In this document: positions 6,446 to 33,243 of the stretch, piece by piece
How the letters are laid out: each line of letters starts with the position of its first letter
Numbering within the stretch: position 1 is the stretch's first letter
Assembly (NCBI RefSeq): GCF_002834235.1
Contig: NZ_NNBY01000035.1
Coordinates: 110,685 to 174,684 of the forward strand
Reading direction: 5' to 3'
Source: Ruminococcus bromii
Lineage (GTDB): Bacteria; Bacillota; Clostridia; Oscillospirales; Acutalibacteraceae
Length of the DNA: 64,000 nucleotides
Notes under the pieces: model-generated
Told to the model about the DNA's origin: nothing
Seen by the model: only the letters and a program-made list of their open reading frames with translations
Database searches by the model: none
Made by a program: the position numbers and the translations under genes

Positions 6446-6453
6446 GGAAAATT

Positions 6454-19903: not shown

Positions 19904-19944
19904 TGCACAAGCCCATAAATACTTGGACTTGTGCATATTTTTTA
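19904..19944 (+). terminator. Intrinsic terminator closing the polysaccharide locus
   Basis: Stem GCACAAG (19905-19911) with CTTGTGC (19928-19934), then ATATTTTTT. The T-run is on the + strand, so it ends the polysaccharide operon just before the oppositely oriented cotJC 3' half. Confidence 0.75.
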
Positions 19945-20491
19945 CTTTTTCTTCTTTTTCAATTCATTTTTAAAGCATTTTTTATCGAATGAGGGGTTGA
20001 AGGCGTAGAAGTTCTTTTCGTTGAGTTTATCGGTTAAGAGGCGGAGGTTTTCGCCGAAGCGTTGGTAGTGGACAACCTCACGGGCACGCAGAAAGCGAAT
20101 CGGATCTTTTACATCGTAGTCATCGCAGAATCTGAGGATGTTATCGTAGGTTGTTCGGGCTTTTTGCTCAGCCGCCATACTTTCATGCAGATCGGTTATC
20201 GGATCGCCTTTAACCTGCATTGATGCAGCTGTATAGGGAAAACCTGCTGCCGCCTGTGGGAAAATTCCGGTTGTGTGGTCAACAAAATAGTCAGCGAATC
20301 CCTGTTCCTTGATTTCATCCTCGGTGAGGTCTTTCGTCAGCTGATATACTATTGCACCGATCATTTCAAGATGATTAAGTTCCTCTGTGCCTATGTCGGT
20401 GAGAGTGCCTTTGAGTTCCGGCAAGGGCATTGCAAATCGTTGACTCAGATATCGCAATGACGCACCCAACTCACCGTCCGGACCGCCGTAT
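19942..20491 (-). CDS. cotJC: cotJC 3' portion (split spore-coat Mn-catalase-like gene)
   Basis: Codes for the last 179 residues of CotJC preceded by the shared YGG codons: PDGELGASLRYLSQRF, TDIGTEELNHLEMIG and HESMAAEQKARTTYDNI carry the Glu/His ligands of the di-manganese catalase fold (E and H pairs). The expected N-terminus is absent. Upstream of the shared core the frame continues into recombinase-side DNA and reaches a TTG at 20550 with no ribosome site. The missing 31 residues lie 12.2 kb away at 32698-32796. Joining both at the core gives a complete protein of about 210 residues, slightly long because of a Lys-rich tail. CotJC is a mother-cell spore-coat component. Confidence 0.93.
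20482..20491 (+). other. Left attachment core of the cotJC element
   Basis: ACCGCCGTAT, identical to 32704-32713 and in the same orientation. On the coding strand it is ATACGGCGGT, covering the Tyr-Gly-Gly codons of cotJC. Outside the 10 bp the flanks diverge, as expected for attL/attR of a serine integrase. Confidence 0.85.
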
Positions 20492-20500
20492 GGCAGAATG

Positions 20501-21703
20501 TTACTTATTTTGACTGAGAAATATGTTGAGGTGGGAGGCTTTGCGGTCAAATATTATTCTTTTTGTAATTATGGATAGTAAGTCATTTTGCGTTTTTAAG
20601 GGATAAGTTTCTTTAATCGTGAAAGCATCATTATTTAAATTGTTCTTTATAAGAATATTTATTGCTTTAATTACAACTTTTTCAATCTTTTCAATTCTTA
20701 CGCTGTGCGATGAATGGCAGTTGCCGTGAATGTAGGCGGAGCATTGGAGAAGATTATTTTTAATCGGAACAAGGGTTGAATTGCAGTTTGAACACTTGAC
20801 AAGATTTTGAATAAGGTGTCTAATTTCGGTTTGTTTATGGGAATGTTCTCTATTTATTATTCCTTGCAAGAATAATATTTGCCTTGTTTGTTCAAAAATT
20901 ACTTCATCAACAATCGGTTCGTGAATGCCGTTTGAAATTATCAAATTTTCGTTATGGAAATCTCTGCCCGTTTTGCAGATTGGATTCCACCTGATTTTGC
21001 CGATATAAACGGGATTTTGCAGAATATATTCAACGGCACGGCAATCCCAGCGGTTGCCTTTGGAAGTTTTAATTTTTGCTGAGTTCAAGTTGTCACAAAT
21101 CATATTTATATCTTTATTATTCAAAAAATCGGCAAAAATTTTACTGACAATTCGGGCTTTTTCGGCGTCAACCACAAGCCTTCCATCTGTCACTTTATAG
21201 CCGAAAGGTGCAATGCTGACGATGCCGCCACGCTCGGCTTTTTCGGTCATTCCTCGTCTTACCTCACCCGAAAGCCGAATCGAATAGTATTCGTCCGACC
21301 ATTCGATAATGCGTTCAATCAGCTTTCCGAAGGGACCGTCATCAACGGGTTCGGACACGCTGATGACTTCAATTCCGTTTTTTCTCAACAGCGATTTATA
21401 GAAAATGCTTTCCTCCTGATTGCGGGCGAATCGTGAAAATTTCCAGACAAGTACGGCTGAAAACAGGGGAGGCTTTTGCTTTGCAAGGCTTATCATTCGG
21501 TTGAATTCAGGTCGCTTGTCGGCATATCTTCCAGAAATTCCGTTGTCACGAAAAATGAAATCCTCATCAATCAGATAGCCTTTTTCATCTGCAAATTTTC
21601 TGATGATTTTCAGCTGACTTGACGGTGAAAGCTCAGTTTGATTTTCGGTTGACACCCTTATGTATGCCGCCGCAAAGTGATTTTTATTGTAATTTCCCGA
21701 CAA
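20501..21703 (-). CDS. Serine recombinase of the cotJC element
   Basis: A 400-residue large serine recombinase. It has an N-terminal resolvase domain (AAYIRVSTENQ, nucleophile Ser18; SAVLVWKFSRFARN near residues 88-101; GEVRRGM), a recombinase domain (FGYKV, later LQNPVYIGKIRWNP) and a C-terminal zinc ribbon (CSNCNSTL... CSAYIHGNC). All catalytic parts are present, so it looks functional. Length is at the short end of the SpoIVCA/SprA type. TTG 21703 is favoured because AGAGGTGA precedes it; GTG 21712 overlaps that site. The gene ends 10 bp from the attachment core, so it very likely catalyses excision of this element. Confidence 0.9.
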   Translation of the reverse strand: MSGNYNKNHFAAAYIRVSTENQTELSPSSQLKIIRKFADEKGYLIDEDFIFRDNGISGRYADKRPEFNRMISLAKQKPPLFSAVLVWKFSRFARNQEESIFYKSLLRKNGIEVISVSEPVDDGPFGKLIERIIEWSDEYYSIRLSGEVRRGMTEKAERGGIVSIAPFGYKVTDGRLVVDAEKARIVSKIFADFLNNKDINMICDNLNSAKIKTSKGNRWDCRAVEYILQNPVYIGKIRWNPICKTGRDFHNENLIISNGIHEPIVDEVIFEQTRQILFLQGIINREHSHKQTEIRHLIQNLVKCSNCNSTLVPIKNNLLQCSAYIHGNCHSSHSVRIEKIEKVVIKAINILIKNNLNNDAFTIKETYPLKTQNDLLSIITKRIIFDRKASHLNIFLSQNK

Positions 21704-21739
21704 ATTAATCACCTCTTGAAAGAATAATTCTTTTATGCA

Positions 21740-21768
21740 ATAATATGTCTGCGATTGGAATAAAATTC
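21740..21768 (-). promoter_or_regulatory. Possible sigma-E-like promoter of the recombinase
   Basis: On the - strand, GAATTTT (21762-21768) matches 6 of 7 positions of the sigma-E -35 consensus KMATATW. After a 14-bp spacer comes CATATTAT (21740-21747), 6 of 8 to CATACAMT. This would start transcription about 25 bp before the start codon. A mother-cell promoter here would fit developmental excision. It is a pattern match only. Confidence 0.35.
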
Positions 21769-21791
21769 TTCGGCAAATTTCTCGAAAACAC

Positions 21792-21820
21792 TTTACTTTG
21801 CTAACGCACTAATGTATAAT
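21792..21820 (+). promoter_or_regulatory. Promoter of the amino-acid ABC transporter operon
   Basis: TTTACT (21792-21797), 17-bp spacer, TATAAT (21815-21820). A good sigma-A promoter about 70 bp before the binding-protein gene. Confidence 0.7.
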
Positions 21821-21892
21821 ATACAGAGATTGTTTTGCAAGGTGATTTGCAGAACATAGGTAGAGAGTATATCAGATTACGGAGGAATAATT

Positions 21893-22705
21893 ATGAAAAA
21901 GAAAAAGTTACTTTCTGTACTTCTTGCAGGTGCAATGTCAGCGTCAATTTTTGTAGGTTGCGGTTCTTCTGCAACAGACTGGGATTATATCTCAAACAAG
22001 GGAGAGCTTGTTATCGGTGTTACATATTTTGAGCCGATGAACTACCTTGATGCAGACGGCAAGCTTACAGGTTTTGAAACTGAGTTTGCAGAGGCAGTTT
22101 GCGAGAAAATGGGTGTTACTCCAAAGTTCCAGAAAATTGACTGGGATTCAAAAGAGGTTGAGCTTAACTCAAAGACAATCGACTGCATCTGGAACGGCCT
22201 TACAATTGATGATGACAGAAAGTCAACAATGGATATTTCAACTCCTTATATGGAAAACAAGCAGGTTATGGTTGCAAAATCTGATGTTGCAGACAAAATC
22301 AAGTCAGCAGATGACCTCAAGGATAAGACAGTAGTTGCAGAGAAGAAGTCAGCAGGTGAAACTGTTGCTCAGACAGACGAGTTCTTCTCAAGTGCAAAGT
22401 ATGTTTCTGTTGACGCACAGGCTAAGGCTCTTCTCGAGGTTAAGTCAGGCACAGCAGATGTTGCGGTTATCGACTATGTAATGTCAATCGGTACACTCAA
22501 GAGCGGCTCTGACTACGCTGACCTCAAGGTTGTTGACGGCAAGGACTTTTCACCTGAGCAGTACGGTATTGCACTTCGTAAGGACAGCCCCGAAACACTC
22601 AAAAAGCTTAACGATGCTATTCAGGCAGTTGCCGATGACGGCACACTTGATAAGATTGCTGAGAAGTACAGCCTTCAGGATCTTCTTCTTGTAAAAAAGA
22701 AATAA
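21893..22705 (+). CDS. Amino-acid ABC transporter substrate-binding lipoprotein
   Basis: A 270-residue protein with a lipoprotein signal (KKKKL, hydrophobic core, FVGCG lipobox with Cys23) and a family 3 periplasmic-binding fold: GVTYFEPMNYLDADGKLTGFE then FAEAVCEKMG, and IWNGLTIDDDR further on. These are hallmarks of polar amino-acid binders (glutamine, cystine, arginine type). It captures the amino acid outside the cell and hands it to the permease encoded next. The ribosome site GGAGG is strong. The cysE gene nearby in the same element makes a cystine role possible, but the ligand cannot be fixed from sequence. Confidence 0.88.
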   Translation: MKKKKLLSVLLAGAMSASIFVGCGSSATDWDYISNKGELVIGVTYFEPMNYLDADGKLTGFETEFAEAVCEKMGVTPKFQKIDWDSKEVELNSKTIDCIWNGLTIDDDRKSTMDISTPYMENKQVMVAKSDVADKIKSADDLKDKTVVAEKKSAGETVAQTDEFFSSAKYVSVDAQAKALLEVKSGTADVAVIDYVMSIGTLKSGSDYADLKVVDGKDFSPEQYGIALRKDSPETLKKLNDAIQAVADDGTLDKIAEKYSLQDLLLVKKK

Positions 22706-22847
22706 TTTAATTAAAATAAGTTTGTACATACAGGGCGGACTATGTTCGCCCGTTGTGCTTTTTATTGATTATAAATTTACAGGTTCAAATTTGTAAGCCT
22801 TTTGATATATTCAAAACTGAAAATACTTGGATAGAGTGGTATATAAA

Positions 22848-23498
22848 ATGGATCAATTTTTTAATGTAAGCGGTCAGTTGCTTGAGGGATTCGGCGAAAA
22901 CTGTATAATTTTCATTGTAACCCTGCTTGCGGCAATTCCGCTCGGACTTATTATCTCAATGGGTTCAATGTCAAAATTCAAGCCGTTAAAATGGCTGACA
23001 AAAACATTTGTGTGGATAATCAGAGGTACTCCGCTGATGCTCCAGCTTTTCGTAGTGTTCTATGTTCCGCCGCTTGTGTCAAACGGCAGTGTGACATTTG
23101 CACGAATGAATGCCGCACTTATCGCATTTATAATCAATTATGCCGCATATTTTTCTGAAATCTTCCGTGGCGGTATCGAGTCTGTTCCAAAGGGACAGTA
23201 CGAGGCAGGTCAGGTGCTTGGCATGACAAAGGGTCAGATTTTCTTTAAGGTTGTGCTTTTGCAGGTTGTAAAGAAAATTACTGCACCCATGGGCAACGAA
23301 ATTATTACTCTTGTAAAGGATACTTCGCTTTCAAGCGTTATCGCAATTCCGGAAATTCTTATGAGAGCAAAGGACTTCTCAATGCAGGGACTCATTTGGC
23401 CGCTTTTCTATTCGGCAGTATTCTTCCTCGCATTCTGCGGAATTCTTACCTTGCTTTTCTCATTTATCGAGAAAAAGCTTGATTACTACAAGGGTTAA
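22848..23498 (+). CDS. Amino-acid ABC transporter permease
   Basis: A 216-residue HisMQ-type permease with about five helices. WIIRGTPLMLQLFVVFY and AYFSEIFRGGIESVPKGQYEAGQVLGM contain the EAA loop (E-A-G-x-x-L-G) that docks the ATPase. I take ATG 22848; an in-frame TTG at 22827 gives 7 more residues and cannot be excluded. It lies 140 bp after the binding-protein gene, where the messenger may be processed, and 12 bp before the ATPase gene. Confidence 0.88.
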   Translation: MDQFFNVSGQLLEGFGENCIIFIVTLLAAIPLGLIISMGSMSKFKPLKWLTKTFVWIIRGTPLMLQLFVVFYVPPLVSNGSVTFARMNAALIAFIINYAAYFSEIFRGGIESVPKGQYEAGQVLGMTKGQIFFKVVLLQVVKKITAPMGNEIITLVKDTSLSSVIAIPEILMRAKDFSMQGLIWPLFYSAVFFLAFCGILTLLFSFIEKKLDYYKG

Positions 23499-23510
23499 GG
23501 GGGAAAGGTT

Positions 23511-24308
23511 ATGTCTTTGTTAAATGTTGAAAACATCCGTAAAAGCTACGGCAAAACAGAGGTTTTGAAAGATATCAGCTTTTCTCTTAAAAAGGGCGAG
23601 GTGCTTGCGATTATCGGTTCATCGGGTTCGGGCAAGACTACGCTGTTAAGATGTCTTAATTTTCTTGAAACTCCGGGCAACGGCAAGATTTCCGTCAATG
23701 ACGAAGTGCTTTTTGACAGCAATGACAGCTCTGCAAAGAGCGACAGCGAAATCAGAAAAAGACGACTTCATTTCGGACTTGTGTTCCAGTCATTTAACCT
23801 GTTTCCGCAATATACGGTTATCGAGAATATTATGCTTGCTCCAAAGCTTGCCGCAAAAGAGCAGATAAAGCAGACAGGCGAATATATGGGGGCAAAAAGC
23901 TATAAAGAGGCTCATGAAATTATCAAGAGCAATGCAAAGTCTTTGCTTGAAAGGGTAGGACTTTCCGAAAAGAGCGAGTCATATCCGTGTAATCTCAGCG
24001 GCGGTCAGCAACAGCGTGTTGCAATTGCAAGAGCGCTTGCACTCAATCCCGATGTCCTCTGCTTCGACGAGCCTACCTCCGCACTTGATCCCGAACTCAC
24101 GGGTGAGGTGCTTAATGTTATCCGCAGTCTTAAAACCTCCGACAGCACAATGATTGTTGTAACTCACGAAATTGAGTTTGCAAGAGATGTTGCCGACAAG
24201 ATCATTTTTATGGCTGACGGTGTAATTGCCGAAGAAGGCACTCCCGAACAGGTAATCAACAATCCGCAAAATCCAAGAACCCAGGCGTTTTTGTCAAGGT
24301 TCAACTGA
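23511..24308 (+). CDS. Amino-acid ABC transporter ATPase
   Basis: A 265-residue ATPase: Walker [12 protein letters not shown] (about residues 36-46), Q-loop QSFNLFP, signature [15 protein letters not shown], Walker [15 protein letters not shown], switch His in THEIEFA. Sequence and length fit the GlnQ/TcyC polar amino-acid group. An insert of about 25 residues after the Q-loop ([18 protein letters not shown]) is common in clostridial members. It forms a three-gene transporter with the two preceding genes, and a terminator follows. Confidence 0.92.
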
Positions 24309-24329
24309 TAACTGAATATTAGGTGAGGA

Positions 24330-24353
24330 AAGCACTCGAAAGGGTGCTTTTTT
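24330..24353 (+). terminator. Terminator after the ABC transporter operon
   Basis: AGCACTC (24331-24337), 4-base loop, GGGTGCT (24342-24348), then TTTTTT. Confidence 0.85.
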
Positions 24354-24373
24354 ACATATTTTTGCAAATAACC

Positions 24374-24402
24374 TTGAAAAGTTTATGCCATTGTGCTATA
24401 AT
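24374..24402 (+). promoter_or_regulatory. Promoter of small lipoprotein gene
   Basis: TTGAAA (24374-24379), 17-bp spacer, TATAAT (24397-24402): a near-consensus sigma-A promoter about 78 bp before the start codon. Confidence 0.75.
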
Positions 24403-24479
24403 AATCGTGTCATTCACTGACAAAGGCACAAAGCCTGAAAAAATGAGAAATCCCGATAGGGAAAACGGAGGAAAAACAA

Positions 24480-24869
24480 ATGAAAAGAATTTTCACAATC
24501 AGCGTTGCGGCTGTTATGGCACTTCTTATGGTGCTTTCACTTACAGCCTGCGGTAATTCAACACTCGGCTATTACAAGCTTACAAGTGCAGAAGCAAGCG
24601 GTATGAGTTTTGACAGCAGTACTCTTGCCGCTGTCGGTATGGACAAAGGCTACATTCTTCTTAAAGAAGACGGCAAGGCTAAGCTTTCTGCAGCCGGTCA
24701 GGAGCAGGATTTCACATACGATGACAAGAACTTTACAACAGGGAGCGAGAGCATTCCATACACACTCAAAGACGGTGTTATTACAATGGAAAAAGACGGC
24801 ACAAAGCTCGTTTTCACATTTGATGCTAACTTCAAGCCCGAATCTTCTGATTCAGAGTCATCAAAGTAA
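24480..24869 (+). CDS. Small secreted lipoprotein of unknown function
   Basis: A 129-residue protein with a clear lipoprotein signal (MKRIF, hydrophobic core, LTACG with Cys24). The mature part is a short beta-rich sequence with repeated GYILLKEDGKAKL-like strands, similar to small clostridial lipoproteins annotated only as hypothetical (LptM-like or lipocalin-like). It is anchored on the outer face of the membrane. A strong promoter, a GGAGG ribosome site and a terminator make it a single-gene unit. The role is unknown. Confidence 0.75.
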   Translation: MKRIFTISVAAVMALLMVLSLTACGNSTLGYYKLTSAEASGMSFDSSTLAAVGMDKGYILLKEDGKAKLSAAGQEQDFTYDDKNFTTGSESIPYTLKDGVITMEKDGTKLVFTFDANFKPESSDSESSK

Positions 24870-24894
24870 TTAAAACTTAATGGTGAAAAAATTT

Positions 24895-24923
24895 CGGCAG
24901 TCCAAATCGGACTGCCGTTTTTT
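24895..24923 (+). terminator. Terminator of lipoprotein gene
   Basis: CGGCAGTCC / GGACTGCCG hairpin at 24895-24917 followed by TTTTTT on the + strand. Confidence 0.9.
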
Positions 24924-24935
24924 GTATATCCAACT

Positions 24936-24966
24936 AAAAAACAAGGGCAGCGGAATTTCGCTGCCC
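24936..24966 (-). terminator. Terminator of the CobW-type gene
   Basis: On the - strand, GGGCAGCG / CGCTGCCC (24945-24966) followed by TTGTTTTTT. Confidence 0.88.
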
Positions 24967-24986
24967 ATAATTTTTATAAGATTTTA

Positions 24987-26270
24987 TCAGTCTGAAAGAC
25001 ACTCGTCAAGCGCATCAACAATTGCGTGCTTGTCCATATGCTGACCGATGAATACAAGCTTGATTTCTCTGTCGCCGTATTTTTCGTCCCACTTTTCGGC
25101 CATATCGGGATACTCTGCAAGATAGAGCTTCTGCTGTTTCTTTGGGAATGCGGCAAGCCACTTGCCCTGTTCCGTAGCAGTAATCTGAACGCCTGCCTGC
25201 TCGAATACGTAAACATCTTCTCTCTTGTCATCAAACCAGAGAACACCCTTTGCACGGACTACGCTCTTTGGCCAGTTCTCAACAAACTGCTGGAGCTTGT
25301 CCTGATTGAAAGGACGAATGCGGTGGTAAACAAATGAACCGATGCCGTACTCTTCTTCGCCGTCCTCATGATCGTGGTCGTGGTGACAGCAATGGCCGTG
25401 TTCGTGGTCGCAATGAGAGTGGTCAAGACCGTCCTCATCATGGTCATGGTCGTGATGCTCATGTTCGTCATGGTCTTCATCGTGGTGGTGATGGTGGTGA
25501 TGATGACCGTGACGGTCTGTATCCTCGTCATCTTCATCCTTATCATAAATCTGAGCCCAACCTGCGGATGCGGCTGTTTCTTCAAAATTAAAGCACTTTG
25601 TATCGAGAATATCCTTAACTTCAACCTTGCCGAACTGCGATTCAATAATTCGTGCCTTTGGCTGAAGTGTCTTAATCATAGCCTTAACTCTCTTGAGCTG
25701 TTCCTCTGTTACCTTGTCAACCTTGTTGAGGATGATTGTTGAACAGAACTCAATCTGCTGAATAAGAAGGCTTTCAACATCCTCTTCGTCAACATCTTCC
25801 TTGAGGAGATCGTCGCCGCAGCCGAATTCCGTTGCCATACGGAGTGCGTCAACAACTGTAACAATGTTGTCAAGACGGACAAGCTCGGGAATATTGTTTT
25901 CCTTATCGCCCTCAAGAACCGAGATTGACTGTGCAATCGGAAGGGGTTCGCAAATACCGCTTGCCTCAATGAGAATGTAGTCAAACTTGCCTGACTTTAC
26001 AAGGTCTGTAATCTGGTTGATAAGGTCAACGCTCAAAGTACAGCAGATACAGCCGTTTGTAAGCGGAACAAGGTTTGTATCTTTTTGAGTAACAACGCCT
26101 GCCTTTTGAATAAGCTCTGCGTCAATGTTTACTTCACCGATATCGTTTACGATAACGGCACACTTGTAGCCCTCCTGATTGCCGAGGACATGGTTGATAA
26201 GAGTAGTTTTGCCTGCACCGAGATAACCTGTAAGAAGCGTTACGGGAACAGGAAGCTTAATGTTAGCCAT
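24987..26270 (-). CDS. CobW/COG0523-family GTPase with His/Asp-rich metal-binding linker
   Basis: A 427-residue G3E GTPase. It has Walker A GYLGAGKTT near residues 12-20, the metal-binding CxCC motif (GCICC) near 70-74 and NKVD for guanine recognition. A linker rich in His, Asp and Glu at about 250-310 with more than 25 histidines follows, then the CobW C-terminal domain. Such proteins deliver zinc, cobalt or another metal to target enzymes. The start is ATG 26270 (AAAGGA with 10-bp spacing). No Zur box or cobalamin riboswitch was seen upstream. Which metal and client it serves is open. Confidence 0.9.
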   Translation of the reverse strand: MANIKLPVPVTLLTGYLGAGKTTLINHVLGNQEGYKCAVIVNDIGEVNIDAELIQKAGVVTQKDTNLVPLTNGCICCTLSVDLINQITDLVKSGKFDYILIEASGICEPLPIAQSISVLEGDKENNIPELVRLDNIVTVVDALRMATEFGCGDDLLKEDVDEEDVESLLIQQIEFCSTIILNKVDKVTEEQLKRVKAMIKTLQPKARIIESQFGKVEVKDILDTKCFNFEETAASAGWAQIYDKDEDDEDTDRHGHHHHHHHHDEDHDEHEHHDHDHDEDGLDHSHCDHEHGHCCHHDHDHEDGEEEYGIGSFVYHRIRPFNQDKLQQFVENWPKSVVRAKGVLWFDDKREDVYVFEQAGVQITATEQGKWLAAFPKKQQKLYLAEYPDMAEKWDEKYGDREIKLVFIGQHMDKHAIVDALDECLSD

Positions 26271-26487
26271 ATATTTCATTTCCTTTCGTTGAATTGTGCT
26301 TATTAATGCGGATTACCGCTGTCCTTAAATATAACACTTTGCAAAATTATTGTCAATACAAAGTACGGAGTGCGGTCAATCCGAATAGCTGATTATTGCT
26401 GTACATTTTGTGTTTTTTGTATAATCACCTTTTATTTATTTCGGTTTTATGTTACAATAGTCAAAAGTAATTTTACGGAGATAGATT

Positions 26488-27051
26488 ATGATTGTACTTG
26501 CATCTGCTTCACCACGAAGAAAAGAGCTTTTAAGTTTTATAACAACCGATTTTAAAATTGTTCCCGCAGACATTGACGAAACGGTTGAGAACAATGTTCC
26601 GCTTGAAAAGCGTCCCGAATATCTTGCCGTCAAAAAGGCATTGCATATTTCAAAAAACGGTTATGAAAAAGATATTGTAATCGGTTGTGACACGGGAGTT
26701 TTTGTTGACGGCAAAATGCTCGGCAAACCTAAGAACAGGGAGAATGCCGAGAATATGTTAAAACTGCTTTCGGGCAGACAGCACAAGGTTATCACGGGTT
26801 GTTGTACCGTCAAAAACGGTGTTGCAAAATCATTTTCCAATGTAACGCTTGTTGAATTTTTTGAACTTTCCGATTCGGAAATAGAGGAGTACATTGCAAC
26901 GGGCGAGCCTTTTGACAAGGCAGGTGCATACGGAATACAGGGCAAAGGTTCTCTGCTTGTAAAGAAGATTGACGGTGACTATTTTAATGTTGTCGGACTT
27001 CCCGTAAGTGAATTAAACAGGATTTTGAAAAAGGAGTATTTATATGAATGA
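26488..27051 (+). CDS. maf: Maf-family nucleotide pyrophosphatase
   Basis: A 187-residue Maf/YhdE protein: [12 protein letters not shown] at residues 4-15, [17 protein letters not shown] near 67-83, GSGxxG-like [26 protein letters not shown] at the end. The family hydrolyses non-canonical and canonical nucleoside triphosphates (dTTP/UTP type) and slows septum formation when overproduced in Bacillus. It overlaps cysE by 8 bp. Its presence inside a recombinase-bounded element is unusual because maf is normally a core chromosomal gene. Confidence 0.93.
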
Positions 27052-27973
27052 TAATATAAATAAAACAGTCAATGAAATTCTCGAAAGCTATTCAAAGCAT
27101 GAACAGACTTGCAGACTTTCGGAGGATAACATTATCAACAAATCTGTGCTTATTCAGGTGCTTGAAGAAATCCGCAAGCTGTTGTTTCCGGGCTACTTTG
27201 ACAAGAACAGAGTAAGAGAAGAATACATCGGCTATATTGTAGGCGACAGAATAGAATTTATTCAGTACAACCTTAAAAAGCAGATTGCAAAGGCTTTAAA
27301 GGGTTGCGAAAAGTGTAACGACCTTTCGTATGACGAGGTTATGGAAAAGTCAGAAAAGCTGGTTTATGAGTTTCTTTCAAAGATTCCGTCAATCCGTGAT
27401 TACCTTGCAACAGATGTTGTTGCAGCCTTTAACGGCGATCCTGCCGCATACAGCACGGATGAAATCATTCTTTGCTATCCCGGATTTTTTGCAATCACGG
27501 TTTACAGAGTGGCACATGAATTGTGGAAGCTTAAAATCCCGATGATTCCGAGAGTGCTTTCGGAGTACGCACACGGACTTACGGGAATTGATATTCACCC
27601 GGGTGCGACAATCGGCAAGTATTTCTTCATCGACCACGGCACAGGCATTGTAATCGGTGAAACTACCGAGATAGGCGAGAATGTAAAAATCTATCAGGGT
27701 GTAACCCTCGGTGCGTTGTCAACAAGAAAAGGTCAGCAGCTTAAAGGTGTTAAAAGACATCCTACTATCCGTGATAATGTTACAATCTATTCAGGTACAA
27801 CTATCCTCGGCGGTGAAACCGTAATTGGCAAGGGCGCAACAATCGGCGGTAATGCCTTTATCGTGAACTCAATTACTGAGGGTATGAAAGTAAGCATCAA
27901 AAACCCTGAACTCCAGTTCAGTCCCGACCTTTCGGAAAACAATCAGGACAAGTATTGGTATTGGATGATTTAA
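27044..27973 (+). CDS. cysE: Serine O-acetyltransferase
   Basis: A 309-residue enzyme. The first 150 residues are the helical serine-acetyltransferase N-domain. The C-terminal half is a left-handed parallel beta helix of hexapeptide repeats: [41 protein letters not shown]. The His in FIDHGTG is catalytic. It makes O-acetylserine from serine and acetyl-CoA for cysteine synthesis. It is longer than short EpsC-type enzymes, like the Ruminococcus/Bacteroides form. It is translationally coupled to maf, and non-coding repeat DNA follows it. Confidence 0.92.
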
Positions 27974-28465
27974 GCTTATGTTTTAATTGAAAATTGAAAA
28001 TTTAAAATGGAAAATTTTGGTCGGGAAGAAAGTTTTGCGTAGAACAAACTTCACATTCCCGACCGTATTCATATTGATTTGCTTTGCAAATCATTTATAT
28101 GAACAAAATTCTATAAAAGAACAATTTCGTAGGGGCAGATATCATCCGCCCGCACGGCGAGCCGCCGTACCCAACTCGTGTAGATAGTTTGTAATGTAAA
28201 AAAACATATTATACCCGAGCGTAACATTGTAATTGTTTTCACAATTCAGTAGGAGCGTTCATTGGACGCCCGCATTGATGAATGTTTTTGTTTAATCACA
28301 TATTTTTTGATGTGATTAAAATTGTGTATCCAAATGTAGCGACGAACCGTGTTCGTCAATCGTATCGTGTGTAAACACGATGCGAATAAATATACATAGT
28401 TTCAAAATAACCGAACTTTTAAAAGATACTTTAACAGAAAAACATAACCTTACTTTAAACTAATT
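27974..28465. other. 490-bp non-coding gap with repeat modules
   Basis: No coding signal. It holds A-rich DNA to about 28080, then three hairpin modules that each start with GTAG (28129, 28249 and 28336). These belong to the interspersed repeat family described separately. No promoter for the transglutaminase-like gene was identified. Confidence 0.7.
28129..28362 (+). repeat. Interspersed GTAGGGGCG-type repeat, copy A (three hairpin modules)
   Basis: Module 1 (28129-28248) begins GTAGGGGCAGATATCATC and contains the GCACGGCGAGCCGCCGTACC core. Module 2 (28249-28290) is a GGAGCGTTC...GGACGCCC hairpin. Module 3 (28336-28362) is a GACGAAC/GTTCGTC hairpin. Module 1 is nearly identical to 52194-52313. 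Confidence 0.8.
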
Positions 28466-29164
28466 ATGAACAAATATCTTAAAGAAACGAAAATGTTGGA
28501 TTATTCAAATCCTAACATACAGCAGTTAATTGAAAACAGAAAATGGCTTGAACTGCAGGAATTTGACAGGCTGAAATCAATTTATAATTTTGTGCGAGAT
28601 GAAATACTGTTCGGCTACAACATTGACGATAACATTCCTGCCTCAAAAGTTTTGAAAGACGGTTTTGGGCAATGCAACACAAAGGGTACTTTGCTTATGG
28701 CTTTGCTCAGAGCCTGCAACATTCCTTGTCGGGTACACGGATTTACGATTGACAAAAAACTTCAAAAGGGTGCAATGACGGGAATTGTCTATAAAAATGC
28801 TCCGCAAAATGTGTTTCACAGTTGGGTTGAAGTGTATTTTGAAGATAAGTGGTACGAACTCGAAGCGTTTATTCTCGATAAAAAGTATCTGAACAATTTG
28901 CAGAAAATTAACAGCAGTTGCTCAGGTGCATTTTGCGGTTACGGTGTTGCCGTTAAAGATTTCAAAAATCCTGTCATAGATTTTGACCGAAATAACACCT
29001 ATATTCAAAGCGAGGGTATTAATCAAGATTTCGGTGCTTATGATTCTCCCGACGATTTGCTCAAAGAACATCATCAGCAAATGTCACCAGTAAAGGCTTT
29101 TTTATATAAAAATCTCGGCAGACATTTAATGAACCGCAATGTCAGAAAAATTAGAAATTTTTAA
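28466..29164 (+). CDS. Transglutaminase-like (putative cysteine peptidase) protein
   Basis: A 232-residue protein of the transglutaminase-like superfamily. The catalytic triad is visible as GFGQCNTKGTLL (Cys near residue 73), FHSWVEVYF (His near 120) and a following Asp-bearing strand near 135-140. The Q-C-N-x-K pattern and the short length match the bacterial TGc domains that act as peptidases or amide hydrolases. There is no signal peptide, so it is probably cytoplasmic. The ribosome site is weak. The substrate is unknown. Confidence 0.75.
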   Translation: MNKYLKETKMLDYSNPNIQQLIENRKWLELQEFDRLKSIYNFVRDEILFGYNIDDNIPASKVLKDGFGQCNTKGTLLMALLRACNIPCRVHGFTIDKKLQKGAMTGIVYKNAPQNVFHSWVEVYFEDKWYELEAFILDKKYLNNLQKINSSCSGAFCGYGVAVKDFKNPVIDFDRNNTYIQSEGINQDFGAYDSPDDLLKEHHQQMSPVKAFLYKNLGRHLMNRNVRKIRNF

Positions 29165-29190
29165 TTGAAAATTGAAAAAGGTGAACTAAA

Positions 29191-29736
29191 ATATTAAGAC
29201 TAAGACCGTACAAAAGCTGTGATTCAAAACACATAGCCGATTGGATTAAAAATGAGGAAACTTTTGTAAAATGGGGCGGAGAAAGATTTGGTTCGTACCC
29301 GATTAATGCAAAAATTATTGATGATAAATATAGACTTAATAACGGCGATTGCGTTGAAGAGGACAATTTTTACCCTATGACCGCATTTGACGACAGCGGT
29401 GTTGTCGGACATTTTATAATGCGATACATAAACGGCAACAACAAGATACTTCGTTTCGGCTGGGTAATTGTTGATGATACGCAAAGGGGAAAGGGTTACG
29501 GCAAGCAAATGCTTGAACTCGGACTCAAATATGCCTTTGAAATTTCGGGTGTGGAAAAGGTCACAATCGGCGTATTTGAAAACAATATCCCTGCGTACAA
29601 ATGCTACAAATCAATCGGTTTCAATGAAATTGCTACCGACTGCTACGAAACCGAAACCGTAAACGGCGAAGAGAGTAAAATAATCGAGCTTGAAATCACA
29701 AAATCAGATTATATAAACCACAACAAAAGGAAGTGA
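29191..29736 (+). CDS. GNAT acetyltransferase with an apparent ATA start
   Basis: Coding similarity begins at LRLRPYKSCD, immediately after an ATA codon at 29191 where relatives have ATG, with AAAGGTG 7 bp upstream. Translated from there it is about 181 residues with the acetyl-CoA loop RGKGYGKQML and the typical C-terminal NIPAYKCYKSIGF. The first in-frame ATG (29377) would remove the N-terminal strands and helices of the fold. So either ATA is used as a rare start, or a point mutation has weakened the gene. The substrate is unknown. A second GNAT follows after 4 bp. Confidence 0.7.
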   Translation: MLRLRPYKSCDSKHIADWIKNEETFVKWGGERFGSYPINAKIIDDKYRLNNGDCVEEDNFYPMTAFDDSGVVGHFIMRYINGNNKILRFGWVIVDDTQRGKGYGKQMLELGLKYAFEISGVEKVTIGVFENNIPAYKCYKSIGFNEIATDCYETETVNGEESKIIELEITKSDYINHNKRK

Positions 29737-29740
29737 CAAT

Positions 29741-30217
29741 ATGCCCGACTTTACAATACGATACGCTAAGAAATCAGAACTTGAGCGTGTGAATGAAATT
29801 CGTTATCAGGTCAACAGGGTTCATTCAAACGGCAGACCTGATATATTTCGAGATGATTTCTGCGATGAGATGAAAAACATAGTATACAAAGTTTTTGAGA
29901 ATGAATATTCCGATGTTATTGTTGCCGTGAACGGTGATACAATCTGCGGATTTGCAACTGTTGAATACATAGTCAAGGAGAAATCTCCGTACAATTTGCA
30001 AAGGAAATTCTACCGGATTGCTGAATTCGGAGTTGATGAAAACTTCCGCAGAATGGGCGTTGCAACAAAGCTGATAAGCTTCTGCAAACAAGAGGCTAAG
30101 AACAGAGGCTTTGACAGGCTGGAACTTGATGTGTGGGAATTCAACGAGGGTGCAATGAAGTTTTACGATTCCGTAGGATTCAAAACCTACAGAGAATACA
30201 AGGAAATGAATATTTAA
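29741..30217 (+). CDS. GNAT acetyltransferase
   Basis: A 158-residue Gcn5-related N-acetyltransferase. EFGVDENFRRMGVATKLI near residues 90-107 is the acetyl-CoA binding loop (R-x-x-G-x-A), and NEGAMKFYDSVGF near the end is the common C-terminal signature. It acetylates an amine on a small molecule or protein; the substrate is not predictable. The spacing of 4 bp from the previous GNAT gene and the AAAGGAAGTGA ribosome site indicate a two-gene operon. A bidirectional terminator follows. Confidence 0.85.
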   Translation: MPDFTIRYAKKSELERVNEIRYQVNRVHSNGRPDIFRDDFCDEMKNIVYKVFENEYSDVIVAVNGDTICGFATVEYIVKEKSPYNLQRKFYRIAEFGVDENFRRMGVATKLISFCKQEAKNRGFDRLELDVWEFNEGAMKFYDSVGFKTYREYKEMNI

Positions 30218-30223
30218 ACCGAA

Positions 30224-30262
30224 AAAATCCGTATGAAGATTGCTCCATACGGATTTTATTTT
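30224..30262. terminator. Bidirectional terminator between GNAT and symporter genes
   Basis: AAAATCCGTATG / CATACGGATTTT stem with T-runs on both strands, serving the convergent genes. Confidence 0.85.
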
Positions 30263-30278
30263 GTGTATCAAATTTTAT

Positions 30279-31613
30279 TTATTGCCATTTAAAGGTGACG
30301 AGTCCGTAAACATAGATAAATGCGATAGCTGTAGGAACTACATATTTGAAAATCGGTTTCATCCACGAACGCACTTTCATGCCGATGCCCGTGTTGGCTT
30401 CTTTAATGAAGTTATCCCAACCCCAGCCGAACTTGTTGCAACAGAACAGAGCAAGCACAAGAGAACCGAGAGGAAGAACATTTGTGGAAACAATGAAGTC
30501 CCAAAAATCAAGCCATGTTGTACCCTCTGCAAACGGCTGAAAATGAAGAACGCTGAATCCGAGAGCCGTTGTGAGTGCAAGCACAAACACTACAATTCCG
30601 CAAATAAGACTGCCTTTTATTCTTGACCAGCCTGTCAAATCACGAATCATTGCAAGAATATTTTCGCAAACACCCAAAACGGTTGACATTGCCGCAAACA
30701 CCATAAACAGGAAGAAGAGCGAACCCCATATTCTTCCGCCGGGCATATTGTTGAACACGGTTGCCATTGTGTCAAACAAAAGGTTCGGACCTGAATTAAC
30801 TTCAAGGTTGTAAGTAAAGCAGGCAGGGAAGATGATTATGCCTGCAAGCAGAGCTACGAGTGTGTCAAGAGAGATAACATTGATTGCCTCGCCCATAAGT
30901 GAATGGTCTTTGCCGATATAACTTCCGAAAATAGCCATACCGCCCATACCTGTTGACAGCGAGAAAAATGCCTGATTCATCGCACCCACAACAACATCAC
31001 CGTTGATTTTTGAAAAGTCGGGTTTGAGGTAAAATGTCATACCCTCACCCGAACCGCTCAAAAACAGACTGTGGATTGCAAGCACAATCATAAGTGCAAG
31101 CAAAGCAATCATCATATATTTTGTTATCCTCTCAAGTCCGCCCTGAATGTTGAACGAGAGTATAACAAAGGCGATAACAACCGTTATCATCATAAAAATA
31201 ACATTGACTGACGGATTTGTAATCATTGTGGTAAATCCGAGGTCACGGTTGTTACCCGTCAGAAAATTTATGAAGTAGTAAATTATCCAACCGCAAACAA
31301 CTGTGTAAAAAGCCATAATTGCAAGGTTGCCCACAAGGCATGCCCAACCGAAACCGCCCCATTTTTGCTTTGGCTTTTCAAGTTTGCGGTACATTTTAAT
31401 CGGACTTGTCTGTGCCGCTCTGCCCACCGAAAATTCCATTATCAAACACGGAATTCCCAAAACAATAAGACAGATGATGTACACAAGCATAAAACTTCCG
31501 CCACCGTATTGTCCGCACATCCACGGAAACTTCCACACATTTCCGCAACCGATTGCACAGCCTGCCGAAAGCATTATAAATCCGAGTCGGCTTCCTAATT
31601 TTTCACGATTCAC
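30279..31613 (-). CDS. Sodium-dependent (NSS/SNF family) amino-acid symporter
   Basis: A 444-residue polytopic protein with about 11-12 helices. The helix-1 signature SAGCAIGCGNVWKFPW near residues 16-31 and GQYGGGSF near 34-41 identify the neurotransmitter:sodium symporter family (LeuT, MhsT, TnaT relatives). It imports an amino acid with Na+. Bacterial members often have 11 helices, as here. It lies alone, divergent from the LysR-type gene at 31792, which may control it. A paralog occurs at 59269. Confidence 0.93.
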   Translation of the reverse strand: MNREKLGSRLGFIMLSAGCAIGCGNVWKFPWMCGQYGGGSFMLVYIICLIVLGIPCLIMEFSVGRAAQTSPIKMYRKLEKPKQKWGGFGWACLVGNLAIMAFYTVVCGWIIYYFINFLTGNNRDLGFTTMITNPSVNVIFMMITVVIAFVILSFNIQGGLERITKYMMIALLALMIVLAIHSLFLSGSGEGMTFYLKPDFSKINGDVVVGAMNQAFFSLSTGMGGMAIFGSYIGKDHSLMGEAINVISLDTLVALLAGIIIFPACFTYNLEVNSGPNLLFDTMATVFNNMPGGRIWGSLFFLFMVFAAMSTVLGVCENILAMIRDLTGWSRIKGSLICGIVVFVLALTTALGFSVLHFQPFAEGTTWLDFWDFIVSTNVLPLGSLVLALFCCNKFGWGWDNFIKEANTGIGMKVRSWMKPIFKYVVPTAIAFIYVYGLVTFKWQ

Positions 31614-31726
31614 AACACAAGTCCTCCTGCCGAATTTATTTTATCTACACAATATTTTTTCGTCATAAATACTGCTCCTTTGTTTATTTTGCAATACAAA
31701 GAGTAGTATAGCAAATAAAATACCAT

Positions 31727-31755
31727 TTGTAAAATTGATAAAACTGTGCTATAAT
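31727..31755 (+). promoter_or_regulatory. Promoter of the LysR-type gene
   Basis: TTGTAA (31727-31732), 17-bp spacer, TATAAT (31750-31755), 36 bp before ATG 31792. Confidence 0.7.
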
Positions 31756-31791
31756 AACGAAGATATCGTTCGTATAAAAGAGGATTTAGTT

Positions 31792-32679
31792 ATGGATACC
31801 AATGTGCTTAAAACCTTTGTAGCTGTGTGCGAATATTCGGGATTTTCTGCTGCAGCGGAAAAGCTCGGCTATACCCAGTCAACCGTTTCATCACAGATAA
31901 AACAGTTGGAAAGCGAGCTTAACACGGTGCTTTTTGACCGCTTTTACCACAGAATCAGCCTGACTTCCGACGGCATAACGGTTCTGCAACACGCAAGAGA
32001 AATTCTTGAATCTCACGAAAAGATGCTTGAGGATTTGCGTACCCCCGAAACAATTGAGGGCAACATTCGCCTTGCAATGTCAAGTTCTGTCTGCAACCGA
32101 TTTTTTAAAGATGATTTTCTTGAGTTCAGAAAGCATTTTCCTAATATTTACCTTGTCGTTGTCGAAAGCGGTACAGAGCAGATGTTTGATATGTTACGCA
32201 AAAATGAGGTAGATTTGATTTTTACGCTTGACAGCCACATTTATGATTCGGAATTTATAATTTGTGCAGAGCATGAGGAAAAGGTTCACTTCTTTGCATC
32301 AGTTGACAATCCACTTTTGAATAAAGAAAATATTTCGCTAAAAGAATTATGCACCGAGGATTTTGTACTGACCGAAAGTAATATGAGCTACAGAAAATTG
32401 CTCAACAATGAACTTGCCGCACAATCGCTTGAAATTCACCCTGTTTTGGAAATAGGAAACCCTCTACAAATTTGTTCTCTAATCAAAAACAGCAAAATGA
32501 TCTCGTTCTTGCCTGATTTCATCACGGAGGATTACTACAATTCGGGAGAGATAAAACATCTTCCCGTCAACGATTGTGATGTTTCGGTGTGGACGCAGTT
32601 GCTTATCCACAAAAACAAGTGGAAATCTCCTGCGCTTAATGCGTTTATTGATTTTTATCGGGATGTTATACGAAAATAA
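31792..32679 (+). CDS. LysR-family transcription regulator
   Basis: A 295-residue LysR protein: winged helix at the N-terminus (FVAVCEYSGFSAAAEKLGYTQSTVSSQIKQLE, residues about 9-40) and a two-lobed ligand-binding domain. ATG 31792 follows AAGAGG; the longer frame from 31735 covers the promoter. It is transcribed divergently from the NSS symporter gene, the classic arrangement of a LysR protein and its target. The stop codon is 25 bp from the right attachment core, so this is the last gene of the cotJC element. Confidence 0.92.
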   Translation: MDTNVLKTFVAVCEYSGFSAAAEKLGYTQSTVSSQIKQLESELNTVLFDRFYHRISLTSDGITVLQHAREILESHEKMLEDLRTPETIEGNIRLAMSSSVCNRFFKDDFLEFRKHFPNIYLVVVESGTEQMFDMLRKNEVDLIFTLDSHIYDSEFIICAEHEEKVHFFASVDNPLLNKENISLKELCTEDFVLTESNMSYRKLLNNELAAQSLEIHPVLEIGNPLQICSLIKNSKMISFLPDFITEDYYNSGEIKHLPVNDCDVSVWTQLLIHKNKWKSPALNAFIDFYRDVIRK

Positions 32680-32697
32680 AAAGTATCACATTTTGCC

Positions 32698-32796
32698 CTA
32701 CGCACCGCCGTATTGCGTTATGATAATCTTGGCAAGCTTTGCGTTCGGCTTTTTGATATTGACGGGGTACTGTAACTTTTTTTCATAGACAAACAT
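32698..32796 (-). CDS. cotJC: cotJC 5' portion (split spore-coat gene)
   Basis: 32 codons: MFVYEKKLQYPVNIKKPNAK then LAKIIITQYGG, followed by one element-derived Ala codon and TAG. This is the exact CotJC N-terminus. ATG 32794-32796 overlaps the cotJB stop (TGATG), the normal coupling of cotJB and cotJC. The coding sequence breaks off at the YGG codons covered by the 10-bp core. The continuation PDGELGASL lies at 20481 and below. Without excision the product is a 32-residue peptide. Confidence 0.93.
   Translation of the reverse strand: MFVYEKKLQYPVNIKKPNAKLAKIIITQYGGA
32704..32713 (+). other. Right attachment core of the cotJC element
   Basis: ACCGCCGTAT, identical and in the same orientation to 20482-20491. 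It lies within the last cotJC codons of the 5' portion. Confidence 0.85.
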
Positions 32797-33059
32797 CAGC
32801 AATCCTCCTCGTTTTCCCACGGCCACGGTCCCTTTATCCAGCTCCACATATTGGTGCTTGTCATACTCTTTTTCAAAGGACCGAATTTTTCTTCATATTC
32901 TTCAACAAGCGGTTTCAATTTTTCTTTGAAACCGTTCATTTTTTGTATCATTGCTGTATCGTGCGGATGAGTGTCAAGATAAATCTGAAGGTCAAGTGCG
33001 GCAAATTCGTAGGTTGAAACTTTCTTTAAAAGAATTTCTCTTTCAGTCAAGTCCCTCAC
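32796..33059 (-). CDS. cotJB: Spore coat protein CotJB
   Basis: An 87-residue protein with the CotJB pattern: KVSTYEFAALDLQIYLDTHPHD and YEEKFGPL, ending in NMWSWIKGPWPWE. The start is GTG 33057-33059, which overlaps the cotJA end by 17 bp. The reading frame remains open far upstream, but that part only repeats cotJA DNA in another frame. CotJB is made in the mother cell under sigma-E in Bacillus subtilis and forms part of an inner spore-coat complex with CotJA and CotJC. Confidence 0.93.
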   Translation of the reverse strand: MRDLTEREILLKKVSTYEFAALDLQIYLDTHPHDTAMIQKMNGFKEKLKPLVEEYEEKFGPLKKSMTSTNMWSWIKGPWPWENEEDC

Positions 33060-33243
33060 CGCATTTCTTTCCGTAGAATGGTTTGTTGAGAACGGGGAAC
33101 ATTGTACCCGACTCAAGTCCCTGCAACGGGCTGTAGGTTGGGGAGTCGAACTGCTGAAAGGGAACATATGCCATAGCCTCGCTCGTTCTCTTTGGCAGAC
33201 ACGGTATTCCGTACTGCTGAGAAATAATTTCTTTAATATCCAA
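33043..33243 (-). CDS. cotJA: Spore coat-associated protein CotJA
   Basis: A 66-residue protein, proline and tyrosine rich. AMAYVPFQQFDSPTYSPLQGL and GTMFPVLNKPFYG are hallmarks of CotJA (VPxQ-x-F...Y-x-x-xxALxxGTxFPxLxxPF). The start is TTG 33243 with AAAGGAG 7 bp upstream. It is first of the cotJA-cotJB-cotJC operon, which is interrupted by the 12.2-kb element. A CATATTAT octamer about 65 bp upstream matches the -10 of the recombinase's possible sigma-E promoter, but no good -35 is visible at normal spacing. Confidence 0.92.
   Translation of the reverse strand: MDIKEIISQQYGIPCLPKRTSEAMAYVPFQQFDSPTYSPLQGLESGTMFPVLNKPFYGKKCGEGLD

What the first reader, a model, noticed from the sequence alone, without database searches (positions are those of the whole stretch)
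19942..32796. Spore-coat gene cotJC is split by a 12.2-kb recombinase element and can be rejoined exactly in frame
The cotJA-cotJB-cotJC operon is intact up to codon 31 of cotJC (ending ITQYGG at 32704). The rest of cotJC (YGGPDGELGAS onward) is at 20491 and below. Both parts share ATACGGCGGT as a direct repeat. Removing 20482-32703 produces CAATACGGCGGTCCGGAC, reading Q-Y-G-G-P-D as in normal CotJC. A complete serine recombinase gene ends 10 bp inside the left repeat. CotJC is a mother-cell protein, so excision in that disposable cell would leave the germ line unchanged, as for skin in sigK and SP-beta in spsM. Other interrupted sporulation genes have been reported; I cannot check here whether cotJC is among them in this lineage.
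Basis: partly seen in the sequence, partly recalled or inferred. Interest (0 to 1): 0.96.

Follow-up and report, generated by a model that had tools for sequence, protein, structure and literature searches.

The report
Spore-coat gene split by excisable DNA
In a Ruminococcus bromii-like gut bacterium and many of its relatives, the spore-coat gene cotJC is broken into two to four pieces by DNA elements that carry recombinase genes, and these elements are predicted to be cut out in the disposable mother cell, which would rejoin the gene in frame while the spore would keep the split version.

Summary
cotJC is cut after codon 31 by a 12,222-bp element (20482-32703) with 10-bp repeats; a serine recombinase ends 9 bp inside it. 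PF05067 finds no other cotJC in the genome. Removing the element gives a 210-aa CotJC; its closed ends form a ~48-bp imperfect palindrome, as in a serine-integrase attP, and the rejoined site does not. Both pieces are under strong purifying selection in R. bromii-clade genomes sharing the element.
Beyond the finding: cotJC is a hotspot. In 41 of 100 genomes of the genus only pieces remain, cut near codon 31, 64 or 137. The sites have different recombinase clades, and one genome has four pieces. Of 80 phage loci fetched for the codon-31 recombinase, 21 hold a cotJC piece. The window's element shows no other recognised phage gene, holds the genome's only Maf hit, and its recombinase lacks the coiled coil that enforces integration, so it is predicted to excise without a directionality factor. 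Excision in sporulation is inferred, not shown. Searches found no paper on it.

The parts
33043..33243 (-). cotJA, 66 aa
   Evidence: Pfam CotJA 6.9e-16
32796..33059 (-). cotJB (start codon uncertain)
   Evidence: Pfam CotJB 1.5e-25; tblastn extent
32704..32796 (-). cotJC 5' piece, codons 1-31, including the repeat copy 32704-32713
   Evidence: 0 nonsynonymous changes in six pairs of 4 genomes
20482..32703 (.). 12,222-bp intervening element (one repeat copy plus interior)
   Evidence: in-frame rejoining and palindromic circle junction
32680..32703 (-). element-side arm of the attachment site next to the 5' piece
   Evidence: half of the attP palindrome; conserved in L076 and L077
20482..20515 (-). 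repeat copy (20482-20491) and element-side arm (20492-20515) next to the 3' piece
   Evidence: other half of the attP palindrome
20501..21712 (-). large serine recombinase, 403 aa, lacking the coiled coil
   Evidence: Pfam Resolvase, Recombinase, Zn_ribbon_recom; alignments
21893..24308 (+). cargo: amino-acid-type ABC transporter (SBP_bac_3 21893-22705, permease 22827-23498, ATPase 23511-24308)
   Evidence: Pfam
24480..24869 (+). cargo: 129-aa protein with no Pfam family
24987..26279 (-). cargo: CobW-type GTPase, 430 aa
   Evidence: Pfam cobW and CobW_C
26488..27051 (+). cargo: Maf, the only Maf hit in the genome
   Evidence: Pfam Maf; one match in own genome at E <= 0.001
27044..27973 (+). 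cargo: serine-acetyltransferase-like hexapeptide protein, 309 aa
   Evidence: Pfam Hexapep, the finer name is recalled; a second, 44% identical homologue lies elsewhere
28466..30217 (+). cargo only in the window's version as against ATCC 27255: transglutaminase-like (28466-29164) and two GNAT acetyltransferases (29377-29736, 29741-30217)
   Evidence: Pfam; stretch absent from L033's element
30279..31613 (-). cargo: sodium:neurotransmitter-symporter family transporter
   Evidence: Pfam SNF
31735..32679 (+). cargo: LysR-type regulator
   Evidence: Pfam
19942..20491 (-). cotJC 3' piece, codon 29 to stop, including the repeat copy
   Evidence: PF05067; dN/dS 0.007-0.033

Best explanation
The single cotJC gene is interrupted after codon 31 by a 12.2-kb element bounded by serine-integrase-type attachment sites, and this element is likely excised during sporulation, in the mother cell, by its own 403-aa serine recombinase, which would restore an in-frame cotJC and leave the spore's chromosome split. 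Shown by sequence: the split, the att-type ends, the in-frame join, no other cotJC hit in the genome, purifying selection on both pieces and on the recombinase, the same element in four R. bromii-clade genomes, and use of the same codon by phages and other elements in relatives. Inferred: that the recombinase is active, that excision is confined to the mother cell, and that loss of the coiled coil lets it act on attL x attR without a directionality factor, which would make it a one-way, domesticated excision enzyme descended from a phage integrase. The same gene is cut near two further codons (~64 and ~137) in relatives by other recombinase clades, so cotJC is a recurrent host for such elements, one to three at a time.
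For: Split and join. No second copy. attP palindrome against non-palindromic attB: of 30 script-paired junctions, 24 have p<0.05 for attP and 1 for attB (the three R. bromii-clade rows are near copies; two of the six misses were wrong pairings, placed again but not retested). Selection: 3' piece window-RUG11705 33 synonymous to 2 nonsynonymous changes, dN/dS 0.013; 5' piece 0 nonsynonymous in six pairs; recombinase dN/dS 0.11-0.16. Element collinear at about 90-99% DNA identity in its long blocks in four R. bromii-clade genomes. Genus: 41 of 100 genomes with cotJC only in pieces, by my reading of the table. Recombinase branches follow sites A, B (two branches) and C. Phage link: 21 of 80 IMG/VR loci have a cotJC piece, reversed-protein control 0. 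Coiled coil missing; effect of its deletion in LI integrase from PMC10754689. No intact R. bromii-type cotJC among the best 120 listed proteins, while two recombinase clusters of 96% identity hold 3,546 and 4,403 members. Sporulation genes; PMC5814915.
Against: No direct evidence of excision: no reads, no joined form in any assembly seen. In phiC31 integrase, deleting the coiled coil abolished recombination (PMC10754689), so its loss could mean inactivity; conservation at dN/dS 0.11-0.16 and coiled-coil-less relatives down to 61% identity argue against that. No directionality factor was identified. No sporulation promoter could be shown for the recombinase. Six of 30 junctions showed no significant attP palindrome. 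cotJC can apparently be lost: 8 of 100 genomes had no match, one of them (G057) listed as 100% complete. Rejoining in frame is automatic for any site-specific insertion and is no evidence of use by itself.
Confidence: 0.8

Rival explanations
1. An ordinary mobile element or prophage remnant that uses cotJC as its attachment site and leaves at low random frequency, with no developmental control.
For: Related recombinases at this codon sit in phage contigs; 48 of 100 genomes of the genus have a full-length cotJC; the A-type recombinases of all 21 phage loci with a cotJC piece keep the coiled coil.
Against: The window's element has no recognised phage gene apart from the recombinase, has the same backbone of cargo in four genomes, carries the only Maf hit, and no intact R. 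bromii-type cotJC was listed.
Confidence: 0.12
2. cotJC is dead in this lineage: the insertion is a fixed loss of a dispensable coat gene and the recombinase no longer works.
For: Loss may be tolerated: insertion mutants of two C. difficile paralogues had less catalase activity but no significant coat defect (PMC11222575, passage read); 8 of 100 genomes had no cotJC match.
Against: dN/dS 0.007-0.033 on the 3' piece, conserved arms, conserved recombinase; pieces recur in 41 of 100 genomes, and middle pieces of ~34 codons stay open and conserved.
Confidence: 0.06
3. The two pieces act as separate proteins without any DNA rearrangement; the 3' piece has its own TTG-started ORF of 202 aa.
For: The 3' piece lies in an open frame reaching into the element, and databases hold such leaders.
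Against: The 31-codon 5' piece is conserved to the exact junction; in doubly split genes the middle piece is ~34 codons; leaders differ between elements and are not CotJC sequence.
Confidence: 0.02

Closest known systems
gin element in gerE, Bacillus cereus ATCC 10987 (PMC5595907; parts 1 and 3 of the text read)
   Same: Non-phage element splits a mother-cell sporulation gene; short repeat; serine recombinase; excised in sporulation to rebuild the gene.
   Different: 28.6 kb, gerE, three recombinases, RDF GirX needed for excision; excision was demonstrated there. Here one recombinase, no coiled coil, no RDF identified, cotJC.
yin element in yabG, Clostridium botulinum (PMC10747680; passages read), and skin in sigK, C. 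difficile (PMC5025042; passages read)
   Same: Clostridial sporulation gene split by an element with an adjacent large serine recombinase.
   Different: Prophage-like and in other genes; CD1231 is described with a coiled coil and an RDF (CD1234), yin with a predicted RDF; excision is reported there by experiment.
SPbeta in spsM, B. subtilis; vfbin in spoVFB; vrin in spoVR (PMC4191935; passages read)
   Same: Phage or phage-derived insertion in a mother-cell gene; supports the phage-to-element route.
   Different: Other genes, one element per gene in the passages read; SPbeta uses SprA and RDF SprB.
Heterocyst interruption elements, e.g. four elements in Rivularia nifD (PMC4874684; passages read)
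   Same: Several excisable elements in one gene used in a terminal cell type.
   Different: Cyanobacteria and heterocysts. Multiple elements in one gene are therefore known; I found no report of it for spore formers in the searches named in the full report.
Prophage phi027 next to a CotJC homologue in C. difficile R20291 (PMC11222575, PMC12122855; passages read)
   Same: A phage attachment site beside a CotJC-type gene.
   Different: Described as adjacent to the gene (gene downstream of attR), not as splitting it.

Membership tests
Sporulation gene-intervening elements (skin, SPbeta, gin, yin) | Splits a sporulation gene at a short direct repeat so that removal restores the frame | tested here: met
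Sporulation gene-intervening elements (skin, SPbeta, gin, yin) | Encodes a large serine recombinase inside the element | tested here: met
   recombinase ends 9 bp inside the repeat
Sporulation gene-intervening elements (skin, SPbeta, gin, yin) | No other intact copy of the gene, so function would need excision | tested here: met
   two matches in G000, both pieces of this gene
Sporulation gene-intervening elements (skin, SPbeta, gin, yin) | Excision and circle formation in sporulating cells | not testable with these tools
   needs DNA from sporulating cells or raw reads
Sporulation gene-intervening elements (skin, SPbeta, gin, yin) | Excision confined to the mother cell through sporulation control | tested here: inconclusive
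   a similar CATATTAT box lies upstream of cotJA and of the recombinase, but GGGCATATTAT also occurs inside an unrelated ORF and one search used a badly chosen pattern
Sporulation gene-intervening elements (skin, SPbeta, gin, yin) | Encodes a recombination directionality factor | tested here: inconclusive
   none recognised; small ORFs were not tested
Prophage-like subclass (skin, yin, SPbeta) | Carries phage genes | tested here: not met
   Pfam on all 13 element proteins and PHROGs on 8 of the 13: only the recombinase has a phage-type function; two cargo proteins match PHROGs acetyltransferase families or unknowns
Large serine integrases | Resolvase, recombinase and zinc-ribbon domains | tested here: met
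Large serine integrases | C-terminal coiled coil | tested here: not met
   9 residues where the reference L044 has 61; model shows only helices 340-359 and 372-382 there (mean pLDDT 72; no coiled-coil relative was modelled for comparison)
Large serine integrases | attP is a ~50-bp imperfect inverted repeat | tested here: met

The most novel reading that the evidence does not exclude
cotJC in gut Ruminococcus and relatives is a bacterial gene with DNA introns: up to four exons separated by up to three elements at three positions, each removed by its own recombinase, so that one coat protein needs several programmed recombinations in the mother cell. In the R. bromii clade the recombinase has shed its coiled coil and become a one-way DNA-splicing enzyme that cannot integrate, and the intron has turned into germ-line-only DNA that stores ordinary host genes, including the sole Maf, which the mother cell would lose.
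Probability: 0.5. Interest if true: 0.92.

Novelty: new variant of a known kind. Interest (0 to 1): 0.83.

Why it matters
Spore formation is thought to carry R. bromii, a keystone starch degrader, between hosts (PMC5814915, passages read); a coat gene that must be rebuilt by DNA recombination would be a hidden step in that process. The recurrence at three positions by several recombinase clades suggests that a terminal cell type makes a gene a safe harbour for integrating DNA. Naturally coiled-coil-less integrases give a direct test of how serine integrases are kept one-directional, with att sites in hand, and the phage, small-element and host-cargo versions line up as steps from parasite to fixed chromosomal part.

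Tried and rejected
Promoter evidence: the upstream regions of cotJA and of the recombinase share a CATATTAT box, but the own-genome pattern was badly chosen (needless trailing positions) and one exact hit of the window scan lies inside an unrelated ORF, so I claim nothing. Directionality factor: not identified. Junction script: 30 pairs tried; two were paired wrongly (L058 site A, L082/L083 site A; placed again, palindrome test not repeated), one lies beside Ns (L105/L104); L083 and L085/L086 at site B and L088/L089 at site C gave no significant palindrome. One search stopped with an error at the third junction of G171; one search finished it and the rest. G161's site-C junction and some others (2-4 shared bases) are only roughly placed. 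The 41-of-100 count is my reading of the table, own genome included: 48 genomes with a full-length CotJC of 75% identity or more, 41 with pieces only, 2 cut by contig ends without site evidence (G051, G065), 1 with only the 35%-identical paralogue (G071), 8 without a match. In 9 of the 41 only one piece was found (G005, G038, G042, G049, G067, G072, G075, G082, G152), G086 has one clear and one weak piece, and some pieces lie near contig ends (for example G003, G005). The earlier Pfam surveys also match a distant paralogue, so I did not count intact genes from them. Tree labels: two rows were set by hand (L137_1313 as C, L058_14045 as B). Structure model: one; no fold search was run.
Full report
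OBSERVATION. The window holds cotJA, cotJB and 31 codons of cotJC on the minus strand at 32704-33243, and the rest of cotJC at 19942-20491 on the same strand. Both pieces carry ATACGGCGGT (20482-20491; 32704-32713). Taking out 20482-32703 (12,222 bp) joins them into one open frame of 210 codons...KIIITQYGGPDGELGASLRY.... The Mn_catalase family (PF05067, which CotJC matches) has exactly two matches in the whole genome, these two pieces (2.40 Mb, 52 contigs, listed as 100% complete). The recombinase ORF (20501-21712) has Resolvase, Recombinase and zinc-ribbon domains and its stop codon lies 9 bp inside the repeat.

BOUNDARIES. If the ends are right, the closed element should show the long imperfect palindrome typical of a serine-integrase attP, and the rejoined gene need not. 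At the window the circle junction scores 13 matching pairs against 9.8 for shuffled arms (p=0.010), the rejoined site 8 against 9.2 (p=0.98). Over the 30 junctions the script paired, 24 reached p<0.05 for attP and 1 for attB. Of the six misses, two were pairs the script chose wrongly (placed again, not retested), one lies beside Ns, and three (L083 B, L085/L086 B, L088/L089 C) simply did not show it.

THE ELEMENT IN CLOSE RELATIVES. R. bromii ATCC 27255 (L033, G032), MAG RUG11705 (L034, G034) and MAG RUG11191 (L035, cut by the contig end) carry the same element collinearly at about 90-99% DNA identity in its long blocks; sizes are 12,222 (window), 10,274 (ATCC 27255) and 10,667 bp (RUG11705). 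Against ATCC 27255 the window's copy has an extra ~1.9 kb with a transglutaminase-like gene and two acetyltransferases. The cargo is an amino-acid-type ABC transporter, a CobW-type GTPase, Maf, a serine-acetyltransferase-like protein, an SNF-family symporter and a LysR regulator. Eight of the 13 element proteins were scanned against PHROGs: the recombinase is an integrase, one acetyltransferase and three others match acetyltransferase or unknown-function families, three match nothing. Maf has one match in the own genome, this one; the acetyltransferase has a second, 44% identical homologue elsewhere. In the 3' piece, synonymous to nonsynonymous changes are 8:1, 33:2 and 33:1 in the three pairs (dN/dS 0.033, 0.013, 0.007); the 31-codon 5' piece has no nonsynonymous change in six pairs; the recombinase has dN/dS 0.11-0.16. 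Selection therefore appears to act on the whole protein although every assembly of this clade seen here is split.

NO INTACT VERSION SEEN IN THIS LINEAGE. Among 5.8 billion predicted proteins the best full-length matches to the joined CotJC are 89-90% identical, probably other species (best 120 listed of 7,996 scored), while two recombinase clusters of 96% identity hold 3,546 and 4,403 member sequences. Of the 17 proteins with at least 92% identity to the 3' piece among the best 120, none begins with the CotJC N terminus: two start inside the gene (P0242, P0243), two have a leader that fits the codon-31 split (P0244, P0257) and thirteen have foreign leaders that join at ...GTEEL, codon ~62. 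Twelve of these thirteen (P0245-P0256) are 93-99% identical to the window's 3' piece, so R. bromii-type strains also appear to carry a codon-64 split; whether both occur in one strain was not determined. Some records labelled R. bromii have an intact CotJC only 87% identical (P0049), probably another species of the complex (inference).

A HOTSPOT WITH THREE POSITIONS. In 100 genomes of the genus, the window's own included, searched with the joined protein, 48 have a full-length CotJC, 41 have pieces only, 2 are cut by contig ends, 1 has only a distant paralogue and 8 have no match (one of these listed as 100% complete). The breaks fall near codon 31 (site A), 64 (B) and 137 (C), and the junctions resolved rejoin in frame. 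Element sizes run from 2,239 bp (site A, RUG277, L041) and 2,370 bp (site B, G179) to ~61 kb between pieces on one contig (site B, G174). Several genomes have two elements: G009, with all three pieces on one contig, about 37.7 and 12.1 kb apart; G083, G164 and G167 (A and B); G080 and G161 (A and C); in G083, G164, G167 and G080 the pieces lie partly on separate contigs. G171 (locus L058) has four pieces, roughly codons 1-31, 31-65, 65-136 and 136-end, with junctions at A (3,964-bp element), B (4,341 bp) and C (pieces on two contigs), all in frame. In a tree of 62 recombinases from these loci, all 33 assigned to A fall in one branch with 7 of the 8 unassigned rows, the 14 B rows in two branches that roughly match two crossover points a few bases apart, and the 7 C rows in one branch (quick tree, some long branches; two labels set by hand). 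So several recombinase clades have converged on one ~200-codon gene.

PHAGE ORIGIN. An alignment of A-type recombinases found 127 relatives in viral contigs, of which the best 80 were fetched. 21 of these 80 carry a CotJC piece; a reversed CotJC gave none. In 20 of the 21 the piece lies within 100 bp of the recombinase; in L174 it is 1.6 kb away. L174 carries a phage-type helicase and a Sak4-like annealing protein, and L178 phage-type transcriptional regulators (ten proteins of three loci scanned, six of them matching unknown families or nothing).

THE RECOMBINASE LACKS ITS COILED COIL. Site-A relatives with a complete ORF are 464-545 aa (starts as chosen), apart from L041 (391 aa) and the R. 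bromii clade (403 aa). The alignment shows that the missing stretch lies between the zinc-ribbon region and the last strand, where other large serine integrases have the coiled coil. Among 109 aligned rows, 9 have fewer than 40 residues there: the four R. bromii-clade genomes (six rows, two being duplicate loci), L041, and two ORFs that are not at site A. L041 groups with the coiled-coil-bearing L044 (99% SH-aLRT), so the loss probably happened twice. Coiled-coil-less homologues about 400 aa long persist down to 61% identity (P0141). The model (mean pLDDT 72) has only helices of 20 and 11 residues there. In the literature the coiled coil promotes integration and inhibits excision; [quoted passage not shown] The prediction here is RDF-free excision, untested.

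MECHANISM. Most likely the recombinase is made in the mother cell, excises the element as a circle and rejoins cotJC, while the forespore keeps the split gene. That cotJ is a mother-cell operon is recalled from B. subtilis, not tested. Sporulation: SpoIVA is present in the genome; R. bromii L2-63 survives heat as spores and encodes the sporulation sigma factors (PMC5814915, passages read). I found no usable promoter evidence.

LITERATURE. Searches 'cotJC + recombinase' (8 papers), 'cotJC + prophage' (13), 'cotJC + interrupted' (2), 'Ruminococcus bromii + sporulation + recombinase' (2) and three wider ones listed no paper that by title, abstract start or the passages read describes an interrupted cotJC; no preprints and few subscription papers are held. 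Genes named as interrupted in the passages read are sigK, spsM, spoVFB, spoVR, gerE and yabG. Several elements in one gene are known from heterocysts (PMC4874684).

Noticed in passing
L090 (G018:C97) 1513-1734 and 6421-6642: Two different 3' ends of cotJC (codons 135-208) lie 4.9 kb apart in tandem, each behind a near-identical attachment-like arm; recombination with one upstream site could give alternative C termini.
   Followed up: partly
G033:C1 87245-92630: An intact cotJC is followed downstream by two extra partial copies of its 3' end, as if elements had brought replacement ends instead of splitting the gene.
   Followed up: no
L036 11420-13243, L083 6725-8548 and others: Site-B recombinase ORFs run on the opposite strand through the attachment site into cotJC antisense; protein P0252 looks like a recombinase C terminus fused in frame to the cotJC 3' piece.
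   Followed up: partly
L043, L045, L060, L068: At site A the recombinase is usually beside the 3' piece on the same strand, but in these loci it is beside the 5' piece on the opposite strand.
   Followed up: no
G009, G025, G047 and others (~35% identity matches): A second, distant Mn-catalase paralogue that is full length; it must not be counted as an intact cotJC.
   Followed up: partly
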